Positions 6,804 to 31,050 of a DNA stretch of 64,000 nucleotides are shown piece by piece. Position 1 is the first letter of the stretch. Each line of letters begins with the position of its first letter. The notes beneath the pieces were generated by a model. That model was not told the origin of the DNA. It saw only the letters and a list, made by a program, of their open reading frames with translations, and searched no databases. A program made the position numbers and the translations under genes. Location: contig NZ_CP070225.1 of NCBI RefSeq assembly GCF_021631985.1, positions 124,001-188,000 of the forward strand. The letters run 5' to 3'. The stretch comes from Sandaracinus amylolyticus. Its GTDB lineage: Bacteria; Myxococcota_A; Polyangia; Polyangiales; Sandaracinaceae.

Positions 6804-8537
6804 TCAGTCCGCGCGATCCCAGTCGCGGTTGTAGCCCGTGACGAAGTCGCGACCGAGCGTTCGGACGAGCCGCCCCGCGTAGCCGAGCTCCGACGCCCAC
6901 TCGTCCGCCGCCATCTTCACGACGTGGCGCAGCACGAAGCGGCGCGCGTAGCTGTCGCGGATCCCCTGCGGCGCGTCGCGCTGCATCCACTGGATCAGCG
7001 GGCCGACCTTGGGCAGCGTGAAGACGCCCGGATGACGCGCGTGCGGGCTGCCCCAGGGCGCCGGCCAGAGGCGACTCTCCTCGATCACCGCGAAGATGCG
7101 ATCCGCAGCCTGCGATGCGGTGATGCGCTTCTCCGCGTACGCGTCGACCTCCGCCGCCGCGCGCTCGAAGAGCGCCATGTACTCGGGGAGATCCGAGCCC
7201 TGCAGACCGCCGAAGGGCTCGAGCTCGTAGGTCTCGAAGCGCGTGTCCGCGCCGTGCGTGAGGAGCTCGCCGATCGCCTCGAGGGTGCCGGTGCCGCCGA
7301 AGATCGTCCCGAGCGCCCAGATCTTGTACCAGGCGTTCCACAGCTCGAAGTCGGAGAACGCCACGTACGAGCGGCTCACCAGTCGATCGACGTGCGCGAA
7401 GTTGCGCTTCACGCGCGCGTCGATCGGCATGAAGCGCTCGGTCGAGTAGTCGCCGTCCTTCTTCGCCTCGATCAGGCGCCACGCGAGCATGTTGATCGCG
7501 CCCATCGAGATGCCGAGGCCGCTCGAGAAGAGCGGATCGACGAACGCGAACGCGTGCGGCATCAGGCAGTAGCGATCACCGACGACGCGCGTCGACGAGA
7601 ACTGCAGTCGATCGGTGGAGACCCACTCGCGGATCGGATGCGCGTTCTCGAACTGCTTCGCGAGCGCGGGATATCGCGCGACGAAGCGCCGGAACTCTTC
7701 GTCCGCGGGAAGGCCCGTCGGCGGGTGCACGCGCGGATCGAGGTTCAGCCCGACGCTCGTGAGGCGGTTGGTCGACGACGGATGGTTGTCGAACGGGATG
7801 ACCCACATCCATCCGCCGTCGAACAGGTGGTGCAGCGTTCCTTGCGAGAGCGGGCTCGGAAGACCGTGCGCCTCGCGCGGTCCGATGCACGCGTCGAACG
7901 GCGTCACGCCGTGGAAGTGCGTGAAGATCGATCGCGAGTGGGTGCGCATCGTCGTCGGCTGCTCGCGCAGACCGAAGAGCTTCGCGACCGGCGCCTGCAC
8001 GCCGCCCGCGTCGACGACGTAGCTCGCGCGGAACGCGCTGCCGTCGCGGCACTTCAGCTCGACGCCGGTCGCGCCGAAGTCGAGGCTCGTCACGTCGGTC
8101 CGCTGCCGCACCACCGCGCCGTGCGCGGCCGCGACGCCGAGCAGGTACGCGTCGACGTCCTGTCGGAACAGGTGCACGTCGGGCCCCATCGGCGGCGACA
8201 ACGTCGGCAGCTGCGACGACTCGTGCGCGCGCAGCGGCTCGTCCGCCCGATGGAAGACGAACGAGAAATTGCGCTTCACCCCCGATGTCGTGCCGACCGT
8301 GCGCCGGACGCGATTGTAGGTGCTCAGCTGCGAGATCTCCGGGACGCCGTATCGCATCCCGAGCAGCCGGAACAAGAACGTCGTCTCTGGCACCGTGGAC
8401 TCGCCGATCGCGAACCGCGGATGCGATCCCTGCTCGACGAGCAACGTGCGCACGCCGTTCTCGGCGAGGATCGCGCCGAGAATGCTGCCGGCGATCCCGC
8501 TCCCGAGGATCGCCACGTCGAACGTCCTGTCACTCAT
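6804..8537 (-). CDS. Flavin-dependent halogenase-like FAD enzyme
   Basis: A 577-residue FAD-dependent enzyme of the tryptophan-halogenase superfamily. Members use reduced flavin, O2 and halide to make HOX inside the protein. The N-terminal dinucleotide fold has GSGIAG at 12-17, followed by GESTVP at 45-50. The halogenase signature WxWxIP is intact (WMWVIP, 243-248), and the second marker FxDPxxSxG appears as FVDPLFSSG at 332-340. These favour a halogenase or close relative over a generic monooxygenase. The substrate is unknown and no PKS/NRPS or flavin reductase gene is nearby. The ATG at 8537 is preceded by a good GGGAGG ribosome-binding site; in-frame sequence upstream overlaps the MerR-TPR gene and was excluded. 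It converges on the metallophosphoesterase with no intergenic base. Confidence 0.85.
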   Translation of the reverse strand: MSDRTFDVAILGSGIAGSILGAILAENGVRTLLVEQGSHPRFAIGESTVPETTFLFRLLGMRYGVPEISQLSTYNRVRRTVGTTSGVKRNFSFVFHRADEPLRAHESSQLPTLSPPMGPDVHLFRQDVDAYLLGVAAAHGAVVRQRTDVTSLDFGATGVELKCRDGSAFRASYVVDAGGVQAPVAKLFGLREQPTTMRTHSRSIFTHFHGVTPFDACIGPREAHGLPSPLSQGTLHHLFDGGWMWVIPFDNHPSSTNRLTSVGLNLDPRVHPPTGLPADEEFRRFVARYPALAKQFENAHPIREWVSTDRLQFSSTRVVGDRYCLMPHAFAFVDPLFSSGLGISMGAINMLAWRLIEAKKDGDYSTERFMPIDARVKRNFAHVDRLVSRSYVAFSDFELWNAWYKIWALGTIFGGTGTLEAIGELLTHGADTRFETYELEPFGGLQGSDLPEYMALFERAAAEVDAYAEKRITASQAADRIFAVIEESRLWPAPWGSPHARHPGVFTLPKVGPLIQWMQRDAPQGIRDSYARRFVLRHVVKMAADEWASELGYAGRLVRTLGRDFVTGYNRDWDRAD

Positions 8538-25467: not shown

Positions 25468-27312
25468 TCAGAGCGTCTCGAGCGCGCGCAGCAGCGCGTC
25501 GCCGCGGGCGCGATCGATCATCTGCACGTACGCGATCTTCCCGCGCAGCCACGCCTCGAAGTCGGGCTTGCTCTCGCGGTTCTGCGCGGCGAGGCCGGTC
25601 TTCTTCGCGTTGTGGAGGATCGCGCGCAGCATGCGCACGTCCTCGCGCGGCACGCCGAGCTTGTGCGTCTCGTTCACCACGATGCCGGTGACGGTCTGGC
25701 GGCCACCCGCGCGCTGCACGCGGCCCTTCTTCACCTGGATCCGGAAGCCTTCTTCTTCGACGACGTGGCGGACCCGCGCGATCAAGCGCGCGATCTCGCC
25801 GCGCTTTCCTTCGGGCGCGCTGAACGTGAGGTCGTCGGCGTAGCGCGTGTACGTCCAGCCGCGCGCGACTGCGAGACCGCGCAGCCGTTGATCGAGCTTG
25901 CGCGCGATCTGGTTCGAGATCGCGGGGCTCGTGCACGCGCCCTGCGGCAATGCGCGCGGGCCGGTCGCGACGTCGTACTTCGCGCCGTCGTACTCCGCGC
26001 GCGTGCGCGCGCTCTCGGTGCAGAGCAGCGCGAGGATCGTCGCGACCGCGGGCGAGTACCCGACGCCGGTGAAGAGCCCGCGCACCCGCGGGAACGTGAT
26101 CGACGGGAAGAAGCTCTCGAGATCGAGATTGATCACGACGTCGCGCCCGACGTGCTCGCGCGCGTTCGTCACCGTCGATCGACCGGGCACGAAGCCGTGC
26201 GCGGGGCGCTCCACCGGGAGCTTCTCGAGCACGTGCTCGAGCACCCACTGCTGCGCAGCGGCGAGGCGCGGCATCGGTGCGCTCAGTCGACGTGTGCCGC
26301 CCGAGCGCTTCGGCACGTCGAACTGCACGTAGTGCGAGCGGCGCGCGGCCTCGGCGTGGAAGCACAAGAAGCGCAGCGTCGGGATGGTGACGCCGAGCGC
26401 CTTCGCGACGTCGGCCGGGCTCGCCATCACCGGCAGACCGAGCGCATTCAGCTTCTCGACGTGCGCGCGGCGATCCCCGAGCAGCGCCGAGACGCCGCGC
26501 CCGAGGTAGACGATGTCCTCGCGCTTGCGGCGCGCGATGCGCTCGGCGCGTGCCTGCTTCCGTGCCTCGCTCGCGGCGCGCTTCTCTTCCTTCGTGCGCG
26601 CGCGATCGGCGCGCAGCTGCGCGACCGCTTCGTCCGCGTTCTTCGCGGCGATCGACGACGCGAGCCGGTGCGCGTCCTTGTGCTTCAGCCACTCGTCGCC
26701 GATGCGATGGATCTCGACGAGCTGTGCGCGCGTGAGCAATCCCCGCAGCTCGAGCCCGCGATCGATCAGCGCGGTGCGCTCGTCGCTCTCGGGCGGGATC
26801 ACGTCGGTGCGCCCGATCCACGCGGTGCGCCACGGCACGATCTTCAGCGCGCGCGTGCGCAGCTCCGCGGGCGTGAGCGTGAGCAGCGACCCGACGTCGT
26901 AGGGATCGAGCGTCGGGGCGCTCGGCGTGCTCGCCTTGAGCGCGGGCTGCGCGACGAGCACGGGCTGCGCGACGAGAGGCGCGCTCGCGCTCCGGTGATA
27001 GACCCAGTTCTGTCCGCTGGGCGTGCTCGTCAGCGTGCGCGTGTAGCCGTGCGGAGCGAAGAGGCCTCGCGCGAAGAACGCATCGACGAACGCGATGCCG
27101 TCGGTGACCGTCTTCACGGTGCGCCCGGGCGTGCCGCGCGTCGCGTCGTCGACGACGTCGATGGGCGTGAAGCTCTCGCCCTTGGCCATGCGCGCCTTGA
27201 TCGCGCTCCAGACCGCGGCCTCGAGCGGTGAGCCGGTCGTGCCCACCTCGCTCGTCACGATCGGCGTCGGGCCTCCGGTGAAGAAGTCGACGACCTTCTT
27301 CCAGAAGCTCAT
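25468..27312 (-). CDS. Retron reverse transcriptase with long N-terminal extension
   Basis: Reverse transcriptase that copies part of its own upstream noncoding RNA into msDNA. The catalytic region (about 325-600) contains the retron-specific NAxxH motif (NAREH, 383-387), the first catalytic Asp in LDLESFFP (397), LPQGACTSP (455-463), the active-site YADD (491-494) and the retron VTG motif (541-543). The C-terminus resembles the RNA-recognising thumb. Residues 1-280 are an unusual extension: a wing-like region ~25-105, then a charged helical Arg/Lys/Ala segment ~225-268. Total 614 aa is longer than typical retron RTs (~320-490). The ATG at 27312 lies only 3 nt after the a2 repeat of the ncRNA, as expected for a retron. 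Follows the HEAT and SWIM genes on the same strand. Confidence 0.96.
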   Translation of the reverse strand: MSFWKKVVDFFTGGPTPIVTSEVGTTGSPLEAAVWSAIKARMAKGESFTPIDVVDDATRGTPGRTVKTVTDGIAFVDAFFARGLFAPHGYTRTLTSTPSGQNWVYHRSASAPLVAQPVLVAQPALKASTPSAPTLDPYDVGSLLTLTPAELRTRALKIVPWRTAWIGRTDVIPPESDERTALIDRGLELRGLLTRAQLVEIHRIGDEWLKHKDAHRLASSIAAKNADEAVAQLRADRARTKEEKRAASEARKQARAERIARRKREDIVYLGRGVSALLGDRRAHVEKLNALGLPVMASPADVAKALGVTIPTLRFLCFHAEAARRSHYVQFDVPKRSGGTRRLSAPMPRLAAAQQWVLEHVLEKLPVERPAHGFVPGRSTVTNAREHVGRDVVINLDLESFFPSITFPRVRGLFTGVGYSPAVATILALLCTESARTRAEYDGAKYDVATGPRALPQGACTSPAISNQIARKLDQRLRGLAVARGWTYTRYADDLTFSAPEGKRGEIARLIARVRHVVEEEGFRIQVKKGRVQRAGGRQTVTGIVVNETHKLGVPREDVRMLRAILHNAKKTGLAAQNRESKPDFEAWLRGKIAYVQMIDRARGDALLRALETL

Positions 27313-27315
27313 TCG

Positions 27316-27341
27316 TCACCGGCCCTGCGAGGAGCCCCGCG
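27316..27341 (-). repeat. Retron a2 inverted repeat
   Basis: 3' arm of the a1/a2 duplex that closes the msr-msd RNA; matches the complement of a1 at 24 of 26 positions. The RT start codon begins 3 nt beyond it. Confidence 0.9.
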
Positions 27342-27379
27342 TGCTCGACTTCGTGCGTTGGACCACGTCCGATCACGAA

Positions 27380-27452
27380 GGCACCGCGGGGGCCTGTGTT
27401 TCGACGGACTCATCGAGTCGCTTCGGTGTCGAACACAGGCCCCTGCGGTGCC
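27380..27452 (-). other. msd inner hairpin
   Basis: A ~25-bp near-perfect stem (arms 27380-27405 and 27428-27452, one mismatch and one bulged base) with a nested perfect 5-bp apical hairpin at 27407-27419. This is the expected shape of the DNA stem in msDNA. Confidence 0.9.
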
Positions 27453-27553
27453 CAAAAGAACATCGGGCGTGGGGTTGCATGAGGAAGCAGTGTCCACCAC
27501 GGCGTAACGCCGCGGTCTCCGCGCTGCCGAAGCAGACGGAGTGGGCTCGTGCG

Positions 27554-27579
27554 CGCGGAGCTCCTCGCAGGGTCGGTGA
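27554..27579 (-). repeat. Retron a1 inverted repeat
   Basis: 5' arm of the a1/a2 duplex. Priming from the branched G requires this pairing in characterised retrons. It is followed after about 7 nt by the AGC candidate branch site. Confidence 0.9.
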
Positions 27580-27600
27580 GAGTGAGAGTGCCAATCGAGC

Positions 27601-27625
27601 GGGTGAATCATCATCGCATTCACCC
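27601..27625 (-). other. Hairpin spanning the SWIM-protein stop codon
   Basis: Perfect 8-bp stem (GGGTGAAT/ATTCACCC) with a 9-nt loop. The TGA stop of the SWIM gene lies in the 5' arm. It sits ~22 nt before the retron a1 repeat and could be a processing site or partial terminator separating mRNA from the ncRNA. Confidence 0.55.
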
Positions 27626-29311
27626 GAAAAAGGAACCGCCGATCGAGCCGGCGGCGAGACGGACATCGGCGCTGCCGATCACCGTCAGGCGCAGCGCGAG
27701 CAAGTGACGGCACGCGCCGTTGCGCAGACCGAAGCGACGGTGGTGCGTGCAGGTGCAGCGCGCGCGTGAGAACACGCCGTCGCGATCGAGGATCGTCTCC
27801 GGGGACTCGCCCGAGATGCGCGCGACGAGGAGGCGCTTGCCGCCGGGGAGCGCTTCTTCGCGCTCCATCTTCACGCGGTGCTCGACGAAGAGCTTGCGCG
27901 CCGCGGTGAGCTCCTCGGGCTCGGGGCCGATCACCTTCTCGGCCTCGCGCGCCTCGACCACGTCGCGGAAGCGATAGGCGCCCGCCGCGAAGTCGTAGAC
28001 CGCCTGGCCCTGCTTGCTCAAACGATGCAGCGCGGCGGCGACGCTCTTCTGCGCGTCGCCGGTCTCGCTCGCGAGCGACGCCGGAGTGCCGGTGCGGCGC
28101 ACGCGCAACGTCGAGCCCACACGCTCGAGGGTCGCGGCGTCGGCGGTGAACGTGCCCGTGATCAGATCGAGGTTCGTGCCGCCCGACCAATCGCTTTCGG
28201 TCCAGCCACTCAGCGCGAGCACGAAGCGCATGCCCGGCATCGTCACGATCCAGATGCTCGGGAGGCCGTTGCCCAGCAGGTGCACGTCGACGCGCTCGGC
28301 GATCGGCAGGAGGCGCGCGAGCGCAAAGAGGCGACGGCGCCCCCACACCTTGATCGTCTCGTCCTTCTCGCCCTCGTACGCCGCGCCGCGATCCTCGATC
28401 GCGACGTTCCACGGCTCGAGCACGAGGCGCGCGGGCTTGCCGCGCACGAGCTCGAAGCGGATCGCGCGGGGCCCTTCCTTCTCGCGATGACGCTTCAGGT
28501 GCGCGAGCACCGAGTACACGCTCGCGACGTCGAGCGACACCCGCCGCATCGGAAGGCCCGTCGCCGCGGAGATCTGACCGAACCCGCGCAGCCACGAGGG
28601 CGGCAGATCGATCTTCTCCTCGCGATAGTCGGCGCGCCCTTCGACGCGCACCTCGAAGCCTTCGGGGTCGACCTTCAATCGGGTGGCGCGATAGGTGCGC
28701 AGGCCCTGGAAGTGATCGAAGAGCGGAAGTGAGTAATCGACGTTGGTCGTGCCGGGCGCGGCCTGGTGCGCGCCGTCGAGCTGCTCGCGATCGAGGTAGA
28801 GCGCGCCGTAGCTCGACTCGTCCTTCGAGAAGCACTCGAAGAACACCACGTCGTCGGCGACGGTGACGATCGGATCGCAGGGCACGAGCGAGCGGAAGAG
28901 CTGCGGATCGTTCTTCGCGAGCTCGTTCGCCCACTTCACGCGCGCATCCCAGTAGATGCGGTGCATCGTGCGGAACTGGCTCTCGAGGTCCTTCGAGGGC
29001 GGGCTGCTCGCGATCTCGGCCGCGAGGCGCACCTGCTCCTTCGCGCGCACGTCGCGGCGCACCCGCTCTTCTTCCTCGAGCTGCGCCTTCTTCCACGCTT
29101 CGTAGGCGCTCTTGTCGCGCTTCTTGAATTTCAGATCGCCGATCACGACCGCGTGCAGCGCCGAGATCGCCTCGCGGAATCGCAGCGGGTCGCGCAGCTC
29201 TCCGTCGAGCCACACCCGCTCGCGCGCGAGGTTCGGCGAGAAGCGCAGCGTGGAGCGATAGGGCCCCTGATCGACCCCGCTCTTGCCGAGATATCGCAGC
29301 TCGTAATTCAC
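27620..29311 (-). CDS. Winged-helix and SWIM zinc-finger retron accessory protein
   Basis: A 563-residue protein with a C-terminal SWIM zinc finger of the form CxC...CxH (C519, C521, C534, H536), a module that binds DNA or proteins. Before it lies a winged-helix-like segment (about 408-452; SVAAALHRLSKQGQAVYD ... YRFR). The large N-terminal region (1-400) is mixed alpha/beta with a charged coiled-coil-prone stretch near 75-115 and no recognised catalytic motif. GTG at 29311 overlaps the stop of the HEAT-protein gene by four bases (GTGA). Encoded immediately upstream of the msr-msd RNA and RT, it is very probably part of the tripartite retron; toxin versus regulator role is not known from sequence. 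Confidence 0.85.
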   Translation of the reverse strand: MNYELRYLGKSGVDQGPYRSTLRFSPNLARERVWLDGELRDPLRFREAISALHAVVIGDLKFKKRDKSAYEAWKKAQLEEEERVRRDVRAKEQVRLAAEIASSPPSKDLESQFRTMHRIYWDARVKWANELAKNDPQLFRSLVPCDPIVTVADDVVFFECFSKDESSYGALYLDREQLDGAHQAAPGTTNVDYSLPLFDHFQGLRTYRATRLKVDPEGFEVRVEGRADYREEKIDLPPSWLRGFGQISAATGLPMRRVSLDVASVYSVLAHLKRHREKEGPRAIRFELVRGKPARLVLEPWNVAIEDRGAAYEGEKDETIKVWGRRRLFALARLLPIAERVDVHLLGNGLPSIWIVTMPGMRFVLALSGWTESDWSGGTNLDLITGTFTADAATLERVGSTLRVRRTGTPASLASETGDAQKSVAAALHRLSKQGQAVYDFAAGAYRFRDVVEAREAEKVIGPEPEELTAARKLFVEHRVKMEREEALPGGKRLLVARISGESPETILDRDGVFSRARCTCTHHRRFGLRNGACRHLLALRLTVIGSADVRLAAGSIGGSFFG

Positions 29312-31050
29312 TCGATCACCAGCGAGGGCACGTGCACGCGCACCGCGTCGCGCACCGTCGGTGATGCGATGGCCGAGCGCACCAGCGCCACGATCGCGCC
29401 GCGTCGCTCCGTCTCGCGCACGCTGCGCAGCGTGATCGCGAGCAGCGGCAGGAGCGCATCGGCCTCGTGCTCGCCCTGCGCGATGCGCGCGGCAATTTGG
29501 CGCAGCGCAGCCCGCTTCGCGCGGCTCCCGCGGTGCACCGCGAGGAGCGTCGTCGCCCACACGTGGCGCAGGCTCTGCGGCGCGAGGGCGCTCGATCGCG
29601 CTTCGAGGTGCGTGATCAGTCGCTCGCGCGCGTCGGGATGGGGCGTCTCGGCGAGCGCGGCCCAGAGCTCGGGCTCGTCGCGGAAGCGCACAGTGCCCGC
29701 GAGCACGTCGAGCGCGCGGGCGCGCACGTCGTCGAAGCGGCTGTCGAGCAGATCGCGCAGGTGCCGCGTCTCGCCGATCCCGATCACGAGCGGCATCAGC
29801 CACTCCAGTGCTTCGCCGCGCACGGTGCCGACCGGGGCCTGCACGATCGGCAGCGCGGTCTCGAGCGCGGCCGCGTCCTTCACGCCCTTGTCCTTCGCCC
29901 ACGCGAGCCCGAGCTCCGCGATCGGCGCGGCGCTCGCACACGCCCATCGGGCGCAGGTCGCGAGATCGACGCGCGAGGGGCTCACGTGGGCGCGCATCGA
30001 GGTCGCGAGCGTCGCGGTGAGCGCGGGATGATCAATCGCGAGCAGCGCGTCCCACTCGCTCATCGAGAGCGACTCGATGCCGCGGGCATTCGCGAAGAGC
30101 CGCGACGCGAGCTCGATCACGTCGGCGTGCGGGCACGCGAGGAGCGGGCGGAGCGTCGTGATCGAGAGCGACTCGAGCTCGCTCTTCATCTCCTGCTCGA
30201 GGAACGCCGCGACCTGCCGGCGCACGTACAGCGAGCGGGCGCGCACCAGGAGCGAGAGCAGCGCGTCGAGATCGCGCCACGCCTCGGGGTGCAGCGGGGA
30301 AGGGCGCAGATCCTTGAGGCTGCGCCCGTGCACGATCGTCGTGCGCCGCGGCGACAGCGCGATCGCGTCCGAGCCGTGATGCAGCAGCTGCATGAGGCTC
30401 CAGCTCGCGACGAGGTCCTCGGGCTTGCCGACGTGCGCGTCGTCGTAGCGCGCGAGCGCATCGAAGACCCACCGGCGGAACGCCGCGGGATCGCGGCGGC
30501 CCATCACGCGGAAGAAGCGCAGCGCGCGACGGCGCAGGTGCGCGCGGGTGTGGCTCGAGAAGATCGGCGCGCGCACCGGGTCGGCGCCCGGCGTCTTCGT
30601 GCGCGTCAGGATCGCGACCTCGCGCGTCGTGCTGGTCTGCCAGTCCCATCGCCGCGCGCGCTTCAGCGAGTAGCGGAAGAGCCGATCGAACGCGACGAGG
30701 AACGCCGCGATCACCTCGGCATCACCCGCCGCCTCCGCCGATTTGAAGACGTGCTTCACGAGCGGTCGCTGGCCCGGCGCCCCGCCCGCGGTCTCGTCGA
30801 TCCAGCGCAGCAGCATGTGCCGCGCCCACGGCCGCGTGTCGCGCGCCCACTTCTCGCCGAGCGCGCCGAGCCGTGTCGCGGCGAACGGGCCTCGCCGCTT
30901 GGGCAGCTCCCACGTGTGCTTGCCCTGGCCCTGCTTCGTCGTCTCGGCAGGCTGCCGGAACGCGACGATCTCGGCGAGGAAGCGTGGGTCCTCCTGCGCG
31001 AAGAGCTCTTCGAGCAGGAGCATCGAGCCTGGCTTCGTCGTGACCGCCAT
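29308..31050 (-). CDS. HEAT/ARM-repeat retron accessory protein
   Basis: A 580-residue all-helical protein. From about residue 240 onward it shows repeated ~35-40-residue helical hairpins of HEAT/ARM type (RSLYVRRQVAAFLEQEMKSE; ACPHADVIELASRLFANA; DDVRARALDVLAGTVRF; ALRQIAARIAQGEHEAD). The N-terminal ~200 residues are Arg-rich and may contact nucleic acid. No enzyme motif was found. First gene of the retron operon, translationally coupled to the SWIM protein. The two presumably form a complex whose activity is held or triggered by the RT-msDNA particle, by analogy with other tripartite retrons. ATG at 31050 is taken; 31023 is a possible internal alternative. Confidence 0.83.
   Translation of the reverse strand: MAVTTKPGSMLLLEELFAQEDPRFLAEIVAFRQPAETTKQGQGKHTWELPKRRGPFAATRLGALGEKWARDTRPWARHMLLRWIDETAGGAPGQRPLVKHVFKSAEAAGDAEVIAAFLVAFDRLFRYSLKRARRWDWQTSTTREVAILTRTKTPGADPVRAPIFSSHTRAHLRRRALRFFRVMGRRDPAAFRRWVFDALARYDDAHVGKPEDLVASWSLMQLLHHGSDAIALSPRRTTIVHGRSLKDLRPSPLHPEAWRDLDALLSLLVRARSLYVRRQVAAFLEQEMKSELESLSITTLRPLLACPHADVIELASRLFANARGIESLSMSEWDALLAIDHPALTATLATSMRAHVSPSRVDLATCARWACASAAPIAELGLAWAKDKGVKDAAALETALPIVQAPVGTVRGEALEWLMPLVIGIGETRHLRDLLDSRFDDVRARALDVLAGTVRFRDEPELWAALAETPHPDARERLITHLEARSSALAPQSLRHVWATTLLAVHRGSRAKRAALRQIAARIAQGEHEADALLPLLAITLRSVRETERRGAIVALVRSAIASPTVRDAVRVHVPSLVIE

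What the first reader, a model, noticed from the sequence alone, without database searches (positions are those of the whole stretch)
25468..31050. Complete tripartite retron: HEAT/ARM protein, WH-SWIM protein, msr-msd RNA and reverse transcriptase
Seen: an RT with NAREH, YADD and VTG motifs; an adjacent 264-nt RNA with a1/a2 repeats and msd hairpin; two upstream accessory genes coupled by a GTGA overlap on the same strand. Established: retrons are anti-phage systems made of RT, msDNA and effector; I recall type XIII in the Mestre et al. 2020 classification as having ARM/HEAT and winged-helix-SWIM partners, and myxobacteria as the source of the first msDNAs. Inference: this is a type XIII-like retron in a new host, with an unstudied RNA and unknown effector mechanism.
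Basis: partly seen in the sequence, partly recalled or inferred. Interest (0 to 1): 0.93.

Follow-up and report, generated by a model that had tools for sequence, protein, structure and literature searches.

The report
Type XIII retron with plasmid msDNA copy
This is a complete bacterial retron of a kind already catalogued (type XIII) in the soil bacterium Sandaracinus, and a stray copy of just its DNA-product segment, found on the same strain's plasmid, suggests that the retron really makes that DNA and that it can become pasted into other DNA.

Summary
On the minus strand lie an ARM/HEAT gene, a WH-SWIM gene (GTGA overlap), a 264-nt structured RNA and a retron RT. All three proteins hit PADLOC's type XIII models (E 9e-136 to 2e-171), so this is an ordinary member of a catalogued type, in Sandaracinus sp. 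MSr10575. The RNA is real: fold z = -9.1; in 16 relatives 31 of 50 pairs show changes on both sides. Of 74 other SWIM loci examined, 68 have the RT on the same strand; the other 6 are cut by contig ends.

More interesting: the strain's plasmid pSa001 carries a 137-nt, 99% identical copy of only the msd segment (window 27350-27487). One end lies 1 nt from the predicted start of reverse transcription; a1, a2, the msr hairpin and an RT are absent. It sits inside a short reading frame whose two compared homologues lack it. I read it as captured msDNA: indirect evidence for a ~138-nt msDNA in vivo. A precedent is reported for Nannocystis exedens (known to me by titles and a review sentence). It is rare: 1 of 32 genomes screened. 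Anti-phage function and the effector step remain inferred.

The parts
29308..31050 (-). ARM/HEAT alpha-solenoid protein, 580 aa, first gene of the operon
   Evidence: PADLOC HEAT-ARM_XIII E 8.7e-136; AlphaFold model almost all helical, mean pLDDT 74; Foldseek best hits are HEAT/ARM solenoids such as the PP2A A subunit, with low TM-scores
27620..29311 (-). WH-SWIM protein, 563 aa, GTG start, GTGA overlap with the upstream stop
   Evidence: PADLOC SWIM_XIII E 2.4e-171; SWIM motif CxCx12CxH at C519/C521/C534/H536 invariant in 4 of 4 sequences; Pfam SWIM reaches 3 of these 4 weakly (best E 0.0097) but not the window's own protein. A helix-helix-helix-strand-strand order at about 392-448 would suit a winged helix, but only the first two helices are modelled well (local pLDDT about 80, the rest 50-60; whole model 46.7)
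27316..27579 (-). retron non-coding RNA (msr-msd), 264 nt
   Evidence: fold z -9.07; covariance model R1 built from it and 15 relatives; whole-genome hit 206 bits (it is a training sequence)
27547..27579 (-). a1, 5' arm of the long terminal stem
   Evidence: 33-nt inverted repeat with a2; helix 1: 20 of 22 pairs with changes on both sides
27546..27546 (-). predicted branching G, directly after a1 in the invariant CGAG
   Evidence: C33 G34 A35 G36 invariant in 16 of 16 RNAs; the role is inferred from the retron rule described in PMC6868368
27496..27516 (-). msr hairpin
   Evidence: model helix 4, 96.5% of cells paired
27350..27487 (-). predicted msd, template of a ~138-nt msDNA; the stretch found again on plasmid pSa001
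   Evidence: 137-nt copy, one gap, no mismatch
27316..27348 (-). a2, 3' arm of the terminal stem; 3 nt separate it from the RT start codon
25468..27312 (-). retron reverse transcriptase, 614 aa: short conserved N-terminal segment, variable N-terminal insert, RT domain
   Evidence: PADLOC RT_XIII E 4.2e-156; Pfam RVT_1 7.6e-18; retron RT structures best matched; five-sequence alignment

Best explanation
A type XIII retron, kept at the same place in two Sandaracinus genomes. Shown by sequence: one ARM/HEAT-SWIM-RNA-RT operon with a terminal a1/a2 stem. Inferred from retron biology: the RT primes at the 2'-OH of G27546 and copies the msd from next to a2 towards the msr hairpin, giving a branched msDNA of about 138 nt. 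Supported here: that DNA has been made, because a copy with these ends is inserted in plasmid pSa001. Inferred, not tested: the RT-msDNA particle binds the WH-SWIM/ARM-HEAT pair and keeps it silent; phage damage to, or binding of, the msDNA releases the pair, which stops the infected cell. I take the WH-SWIM protein as the active partner (nucleic-acid binding through winged helix and zinc motif) and the length-variable ARM/HEAT solenoid as scaffold or recruiter.
For: Three PADLOC type XIII models; structured, covarying RNA; RT on the strand of SWIM in 68 of 74 loci, the other 6 cut by contig ends; upstream HEAT-ARM_XIII in 5 of 6 further loci tested, three of them about 2,000 aa; msd-only copy on pSa001 ending 1 nt from the a2-adjacent template base that follows, which ran before the copy was seen; msDNA as latch of effectors in Eco8, Ec86 and Ec83 (PMC13158370, part 1 of 2 read).
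Against: No msDNA was measured, and I have no phage assay for this locus. No catalytic domain was recognised in the SWIM or HEAT proteins, so the effector step is a guess. The exact msDNA ends rest on one insertion in one assembly; the msr-side end had not been predicted to the base beforehand. The winged helix is poorly modelled. One of the 6 upstream proteins tested matched no PADLOC model (L064).
Confidence: 0.72

Rival explanations
1. The plasmid segment is an ordinary DNA-level duplication of part of the retron locus (recombination or template switching), not captured msDNA.
For: Only one clear case; no RNA-specific mark such as a tail or branch scar can be seen; no target-site duplication was seen by eye.
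Against: It contains no a1, a2 or msr hairpin; it starts 8 nt past the msr hairpin and stops 1 nt short of the predicted start of reverse transcription; the flanks can be read on in frame and the two homologues compared lack it. For random break points in 268 nt I estimate roughly 0.1% for both ends to fall so near (own rough estimate, not a call; the msr-side end was judged after the fact).
Confidence: 0.2
2. The operon is a decayed or purely selfish retroelement without defence function.
For: No defence assay; myxobacterial retrons have been described as vertically inherited (PMC6868368 passage), and this locus is syntenic in a second Sandaracinus genome.
Against: All three ORFs and RT motifs are intact and conserved, the RNA pairs are maintained by compensatory change, and the accessory genes stay with the RT across the phylum.
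Confidence: 0.1
3. The accessory pair works as a toxin-antitoxin-like or regulatory module in which the ARM/HEAT protein, not the SWIM protein, is the toxic effector.
For: The HEAT protein is the partner that varies most in length (580 to about 2,000 aa), as effectors vary between retron types.
Against: Only solenoid repeats were recognised in it, apart from a BRCT domain in one long relative, L073, and no enzyme domain.
Confidence: 0.3

Closest known systems
Retron type XIII (Mestre et al. 2020 scheme, recalled; as implemented in PADLOC-DB 2.0.0)
   Same: RT_XIII, SWIM_XIII and HEAT-ARM_XIII all match strongly and lie in one operon with the RNA.
   Different: Compact 580-aa ARM/HEAT protein; the RNA lies between SWIM and RT and abuts the RT start; the RT carries an extra N-terminal insert that its Myxococcus and Pyxidicoccus relatives lack.
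Second type XIII retron of the same genome (G000:C1 3.04 Mb, L054)
   Same: RT_XIII 1.7e-159, SWIM_XIII 2.7e-160; related RNA architecture.
   Different: Upstream protein best matches WGR_XIII (1.8e-92), shorter RT (468 aa), different RNA class.
Nannocystis exedens msDNA-like repeats and partial msDNA copy (Lampson and Rice 1997; Lampson et al. 2002; seen only as titles in a reference list and one sentence of PMC6868368)
   Same: msDNA-like sequence away from an RT in a myxobacterium, proposed there as retrotransposition.
   Different: Here the source retron, both ends, a plasmid target and homologues without the insertion are identified. Whether the 1997 and 2002 papers did the same I cannot tell; I did not read them.
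Mx162, Sa163, Mx65 retrons
   Same: Myxobacterial retrons with N-terminally extended RTs; Mx65 shares the GAGC motif (PMC6868368).
   Different: Mx162 and Sa163 have CAGC by the same source; no direct sequence comparison was made here.

Membership tests
Retron type XIII | RT of the type XIII clade | tested here: met
   RT_XIII 518.6 bits against 347.1 for the next model, RT_other; no tree was built
Retron type XIII | WH-SWIM partner gene | tested here: met
   SWIM_XIII 2.4e-171; CxCx12CxH; Pfam SWIM not reached by the window protein itself
Retron type XIII | HEAT/ARM (or WGR) partner gene | tested here: met
   HEAT-ARM_XIII 8.7e-136; solenoid model
Retron | structured RNA with a1/a2 repeats and msd hairpin | tested here: met
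Retron | priming G after a1 | tested here: met
   invariant CGAG in 16 of 16 RNAs; position only, chemistry not testable
Retron | RT motifs NAxxH, YxDD, VTG | tested here: met
Retron | msDNA produced | tested here: inconclusive
   indirect: msd-only copy on pSa001 with ends near those expected
Anti-phage retron | protection against phage | not testable with these tools
   no assay
Group II intron or DGR RT | closest RT relatives are intron or DGR RTs | tested here: not met
   best solved relatives are retron RTs, E 2e-51; best chain named group II intron RT 2.9e-10. NCBIfam: retron models 201-220 bits, group_II_RT_mat 53 bits, all below their own cut-offs. DGR RTs were not compared separately
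Mx162/Sa163-like retron | CAGC priming motif | tested here: not met
   GAGC in the window RNA; motif assignment from PMC6868368

The most novel reading that the evidence does not exclude
Type XIII msDNA is occasionally captured as a complete, blunt, mutation-poor insertion in another replicon, here plasmid pSa001. Retron cDNA would then act as a bacterial source of processed-pseudogene-like insertions, whose ends record the msDNA termini of unstudied retrons from genome sequence alone.
Probability: 0.6. Interest if true: 0.62.

Novelty: new member of a known kind. Interest (0 to 1): 0.45.

Why it matters
I found no study of type XIII function in the held library: full-text searches gave only one passing PADLOC listing in Variovorax; subscription papers are mostly not held. 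This locus gives an intact operon, an RNA model with strong covariation, predicted msDNA ends and a second retron in the same strain, all testable. If the plasmid segment is captured msDNA, retron DNA products can enter genomes although no retron endonuclease was seen here, and such fossils can be used to read msDNA termini and past activity from sequence.

Tried and rejected
Rejected: group II intron RT. The plasmid copy as part of the neighbouring IS110 element: five other near-full-length places in the own genome begin at query 475-504, after the copy ends at 454; of four in G177, one begins at 448, a 7-nt overlap that I take as chance, the others at 502-503. Phage decoys of the msd: no match in the phage records, no exact 17-nt match in viral contigs. 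Other plasmids with the msd: only pSa001 in the collection.

Led nowhere: structure of the SWIM protein (pLDDT 46.7); PDB sequence matches for SWIM or HEAT; the RNA of relatives in which SWIM and RT overlap without a gap (I looked for a1/a2 downstream of the RT only, and scanned the stretches with R1, and R2; R2 hit only L060 and L104 among the 20 gapless loci given to it); the Mestre 2020 and Lampson 2002 papers are not held. Weak extra matches in genomes with a retron (G325, G159 with R1; G077, G335 with R2; 28-30 bits) show no copy of that genome's own retron RNA (alignment scores 23-32 against 269 for the pSa001 copy); G471 at 31 bits is only distantly similar. A second msd-derived scrap was found for the other retron, but its ends do not mark an msDNA end.
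Full report
OBSERVATION. On the minus strand, in transcription order: ARM/HEAT gene 29308-31050, WH-SWIM gene 27620-29311 (GTG start, GTGA overlap), RNA 27316-27579, RT 25468-27312. No Rfam family matches the window at gathering score, and ARAGORN found no tRNA. GC content (0.70) does not stand out from the window (0.69-0.74).

IDENTITY. PADLOC models: RT_XIII 4.2e-156 (518.6 bits; next RT_other 347.1), SWIM_XIII 2.4e-171, HEAT-ARM_XIII 8.7e-136. Pfam finds RVT_1 in the RT and nothing above cut-off in the other two; its SWIM model reaches 3 of 4 aligned relatives weakly but not the window protein. In the PDB the RT profile matches retron RTs first (Ec86, 2e-51), the best chain named group II intron RT only at 2.9e-10. 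NCBIfam retron models match the RT at 201-220 bits, below their own cut-offs. The genome is 10.96 Mb in two contigs; the second contig is as long as NZ_MW053453.1 (209,732 bp), plasmid pSa001 of Sandaracinus sp. MSr10575, and 100% identical to it over the 7,001 bases compared.

RELATIVES. 66 of 377 genomes of the phylum have a SWIM_XIII match. I examined 74 loci: 70 of the 72 places listed there down to E 1.2e-101 (left out: the window itself, and G135:C803, not refetched with flanks) plus 4. Weaker rows were not examined. 68 of 74 have an RT on the same strand; the other six (L048, L061, L066, L067, L077, L103) are cut by contig ends. In L071 the RT lies about 3 kb away. My own HEAT profile found the ARM/HEAT partner in 34 of 74. 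Of the 40 without it, I gave six upstream proteins to PADLOC: five match HEAT-ARM_XIII, three of these about 2,000 aa long and running to near the edge of the stretch; the sixth, L064, matches nothing. So the solenoid partner is widespread and its length varies. The window retron and the genome's second type XIII retron are each syntenic in a second genome of the genus, G177 (89-94% DNA identity). A third RT (RT_other, 2.8e-151) lies at 9.53 Mb.

RNA. The 310-nt intergenic stretch folds at -170.5 kcal/mol, z -9.07, 0 of 100 shuffles as good. A stem search found an a1/a2 repeat in the window RNA and in all 15 window-type relatives chosen. In the alignment of 16, CGAG directly after a1 is invariant. 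For a 50-pair structure taken from RNAalifold (the five other predicted pairs dropped), 93.2% of cells pair, 31 pairs change on both sides, and the covariation score is 0.467 against a shuffle mean of 0.196 and at most 0.132 in slid registers; the structure came from the same alignment, which favours it. A covariance model (R1) found full RNAs in 10 of 192 genomes of the class (an eleventh, G471, only at 31 bits, stricter filters), in 4 of 4 genomes behind L034-L037 and in G367, G369 and G372; most of these RNAs are in the training set. A sister RNA class, including the second retron of this genome, gave model R2; R2 also finds the window RNA weakly (20.9 bits, E 3.6e-4), which suggests a common origin.

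THE PLASMID COPY. Searching the own genome with R1 gave, besides the retron itself, a 90.8-bit match on pSa001 and one at 22.9 bits (C1 9.27 Mb) that was not pursued. By BLAST the plasmid match is C2:22474-22610, covering only RNA positions 95-232 of 268, 99% identical; the alignment shows one gap in a T run and no mismatch. In window terms it is 27350-27487. One search, run before this was seen, places a2 at 27316-27348, so the expected first template base is 27349: the copy stops 1 nt short of it. The other end lies 8 nt beyond the msr hairpin (27496-27516). a1, branch site, msr hairpin and a2 are absent, and the base next to each junction does not continue the retron sequence. The copy interrupts a short reading frame near its 3' end: the left flank can be read as ...ASTGASRDA and the right flank goes on in frame as IDATYEDASSDADVPLD-stop. 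A homologue in the own chromosome reads ...STPRDSAVDALRDAESDAEVMHD-stop, and one in G177 also lacks the insert (right flank against the chromosomal homologue: 1 of 1000 shuffles as good). Further upstream the best match to the homologues lies in another frame, so the plasmid gene may already have been a pseudogene, and the in-frame joint is weak evidence by itself. An IS110 element begins about 50 nt away but is separate. The plasmid record annotates nothing under the copy. I read this as msDNA, or a double strand made from it, joined into the plasmid. It is a single case: of 32 genomes with an R1 or R2 retron RNA (17 with R1; 18 with R2; three in both) only this one has a strong msd-only copy; four weak extra matches are not copies of the genome's own retron RNA. 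The screen would miss copies that lack the conserved lower msd stem. A 43-nt scrap of the second retron's msd lies at C1:120076-120118 (93%, E 8.5e-10; alignment), but its ends are not informative.

PRECEDENT. PMC6868368 (passages read) says that Ne160 contains several duplicated msr and msd repeats without an RT within a kilobase, and cites Lampson and Rice 1997 and Lampson et al. 2002 ('partial copy of msDNA ... likely a retrotransposed DNA', Nannocystis exedens). The 2002 paper is not held; the 1997 paper was not looked up. So the kind of event is not new; the plasmid target, the identified source and the ends near those expected are what this case shows.

MECHANISM. Steps shown here by sequence: operon, RNA structure, conserved priming site. 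Supported indirectly: msDNA synthesis. Inferred from other retrons (PMC13158370, part 1 of 2 read): msDNA holds an effector complex silent and phage interference with the msDNA releases it. For type XIII I found no described effector. The HEAT protein models as a plain solenoid (Foldseek best hits PP2A-A and ARM proteins with low TM-scores). The SWIM protein is the more conserved partner (mean column identity 79% against 67% in the four-sequence alignments), with the zinc motif and a possible winged helix, so I favour it as the active component, with modest confidence.

WHAT COUNTS AGAINST. No expression, msDNA or phage data. One assembly only for the insertion. The SWIM model is poor. Many relatives (for example L038, L039, L092) have no room for an RNA between SWIM and RT, and I did not locate their RNA.

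Noticed in passing
G000:C2:22474-22610 (pSa001; L110:1527-1663): 137-nt copy of only the msd of the window retron, inserted in a short plasmid reading frame; the two homologues compared lack it.
   Followed up: yes
G000:C1:120076-120118 (about 4 kb before the window starts): 43-nt piece of the msd of the second type XIII retron (93%), away from that retron.
   Followed up: partly
G000:C1 3.04 Mb (L054): Second complete type XIII retron in the same genome, with a WGR-type upstream protein and a different RNA class.
   Followed up: partly
27547-27579 (-) and the same place in relatives: a1 holds AGGAG in 15 of 16 RNAs (L050 lacks it). It looks like a Shine-Dalgarno core inside the stem; unexplained.
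   Followed up: no
27312-27316 (-): The RT start codon follows a2 by 3 nt, so translation of the RT might compete with folding of its own RNA template.
   Followed up: no
L045 about 8143-8301 (G177): About 160 bp between a2 and the RT, absent in the window, with 25-nt inverted repeats near both its ends: MITE-like.
   Followed up: no
RT residues 1-130 (window 26923-27312): A short N-terminal segment (M..FW......F.G, invariant residues in five of five RTs) is followed by an insert in the window, L035 and L036 that is replaced by a low-complexity linker in Myxococcus and Pyxidicoccus. The insert may be a winged helix (guess).
   Followed up: no
   Followed up: partly
L038, L059, L073: Upstream HEAT-ARM_XIII partners of about 2,000 aa running to near the edge of the stretch, one (L073) with a BRCT domain.
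   Followed up: partly
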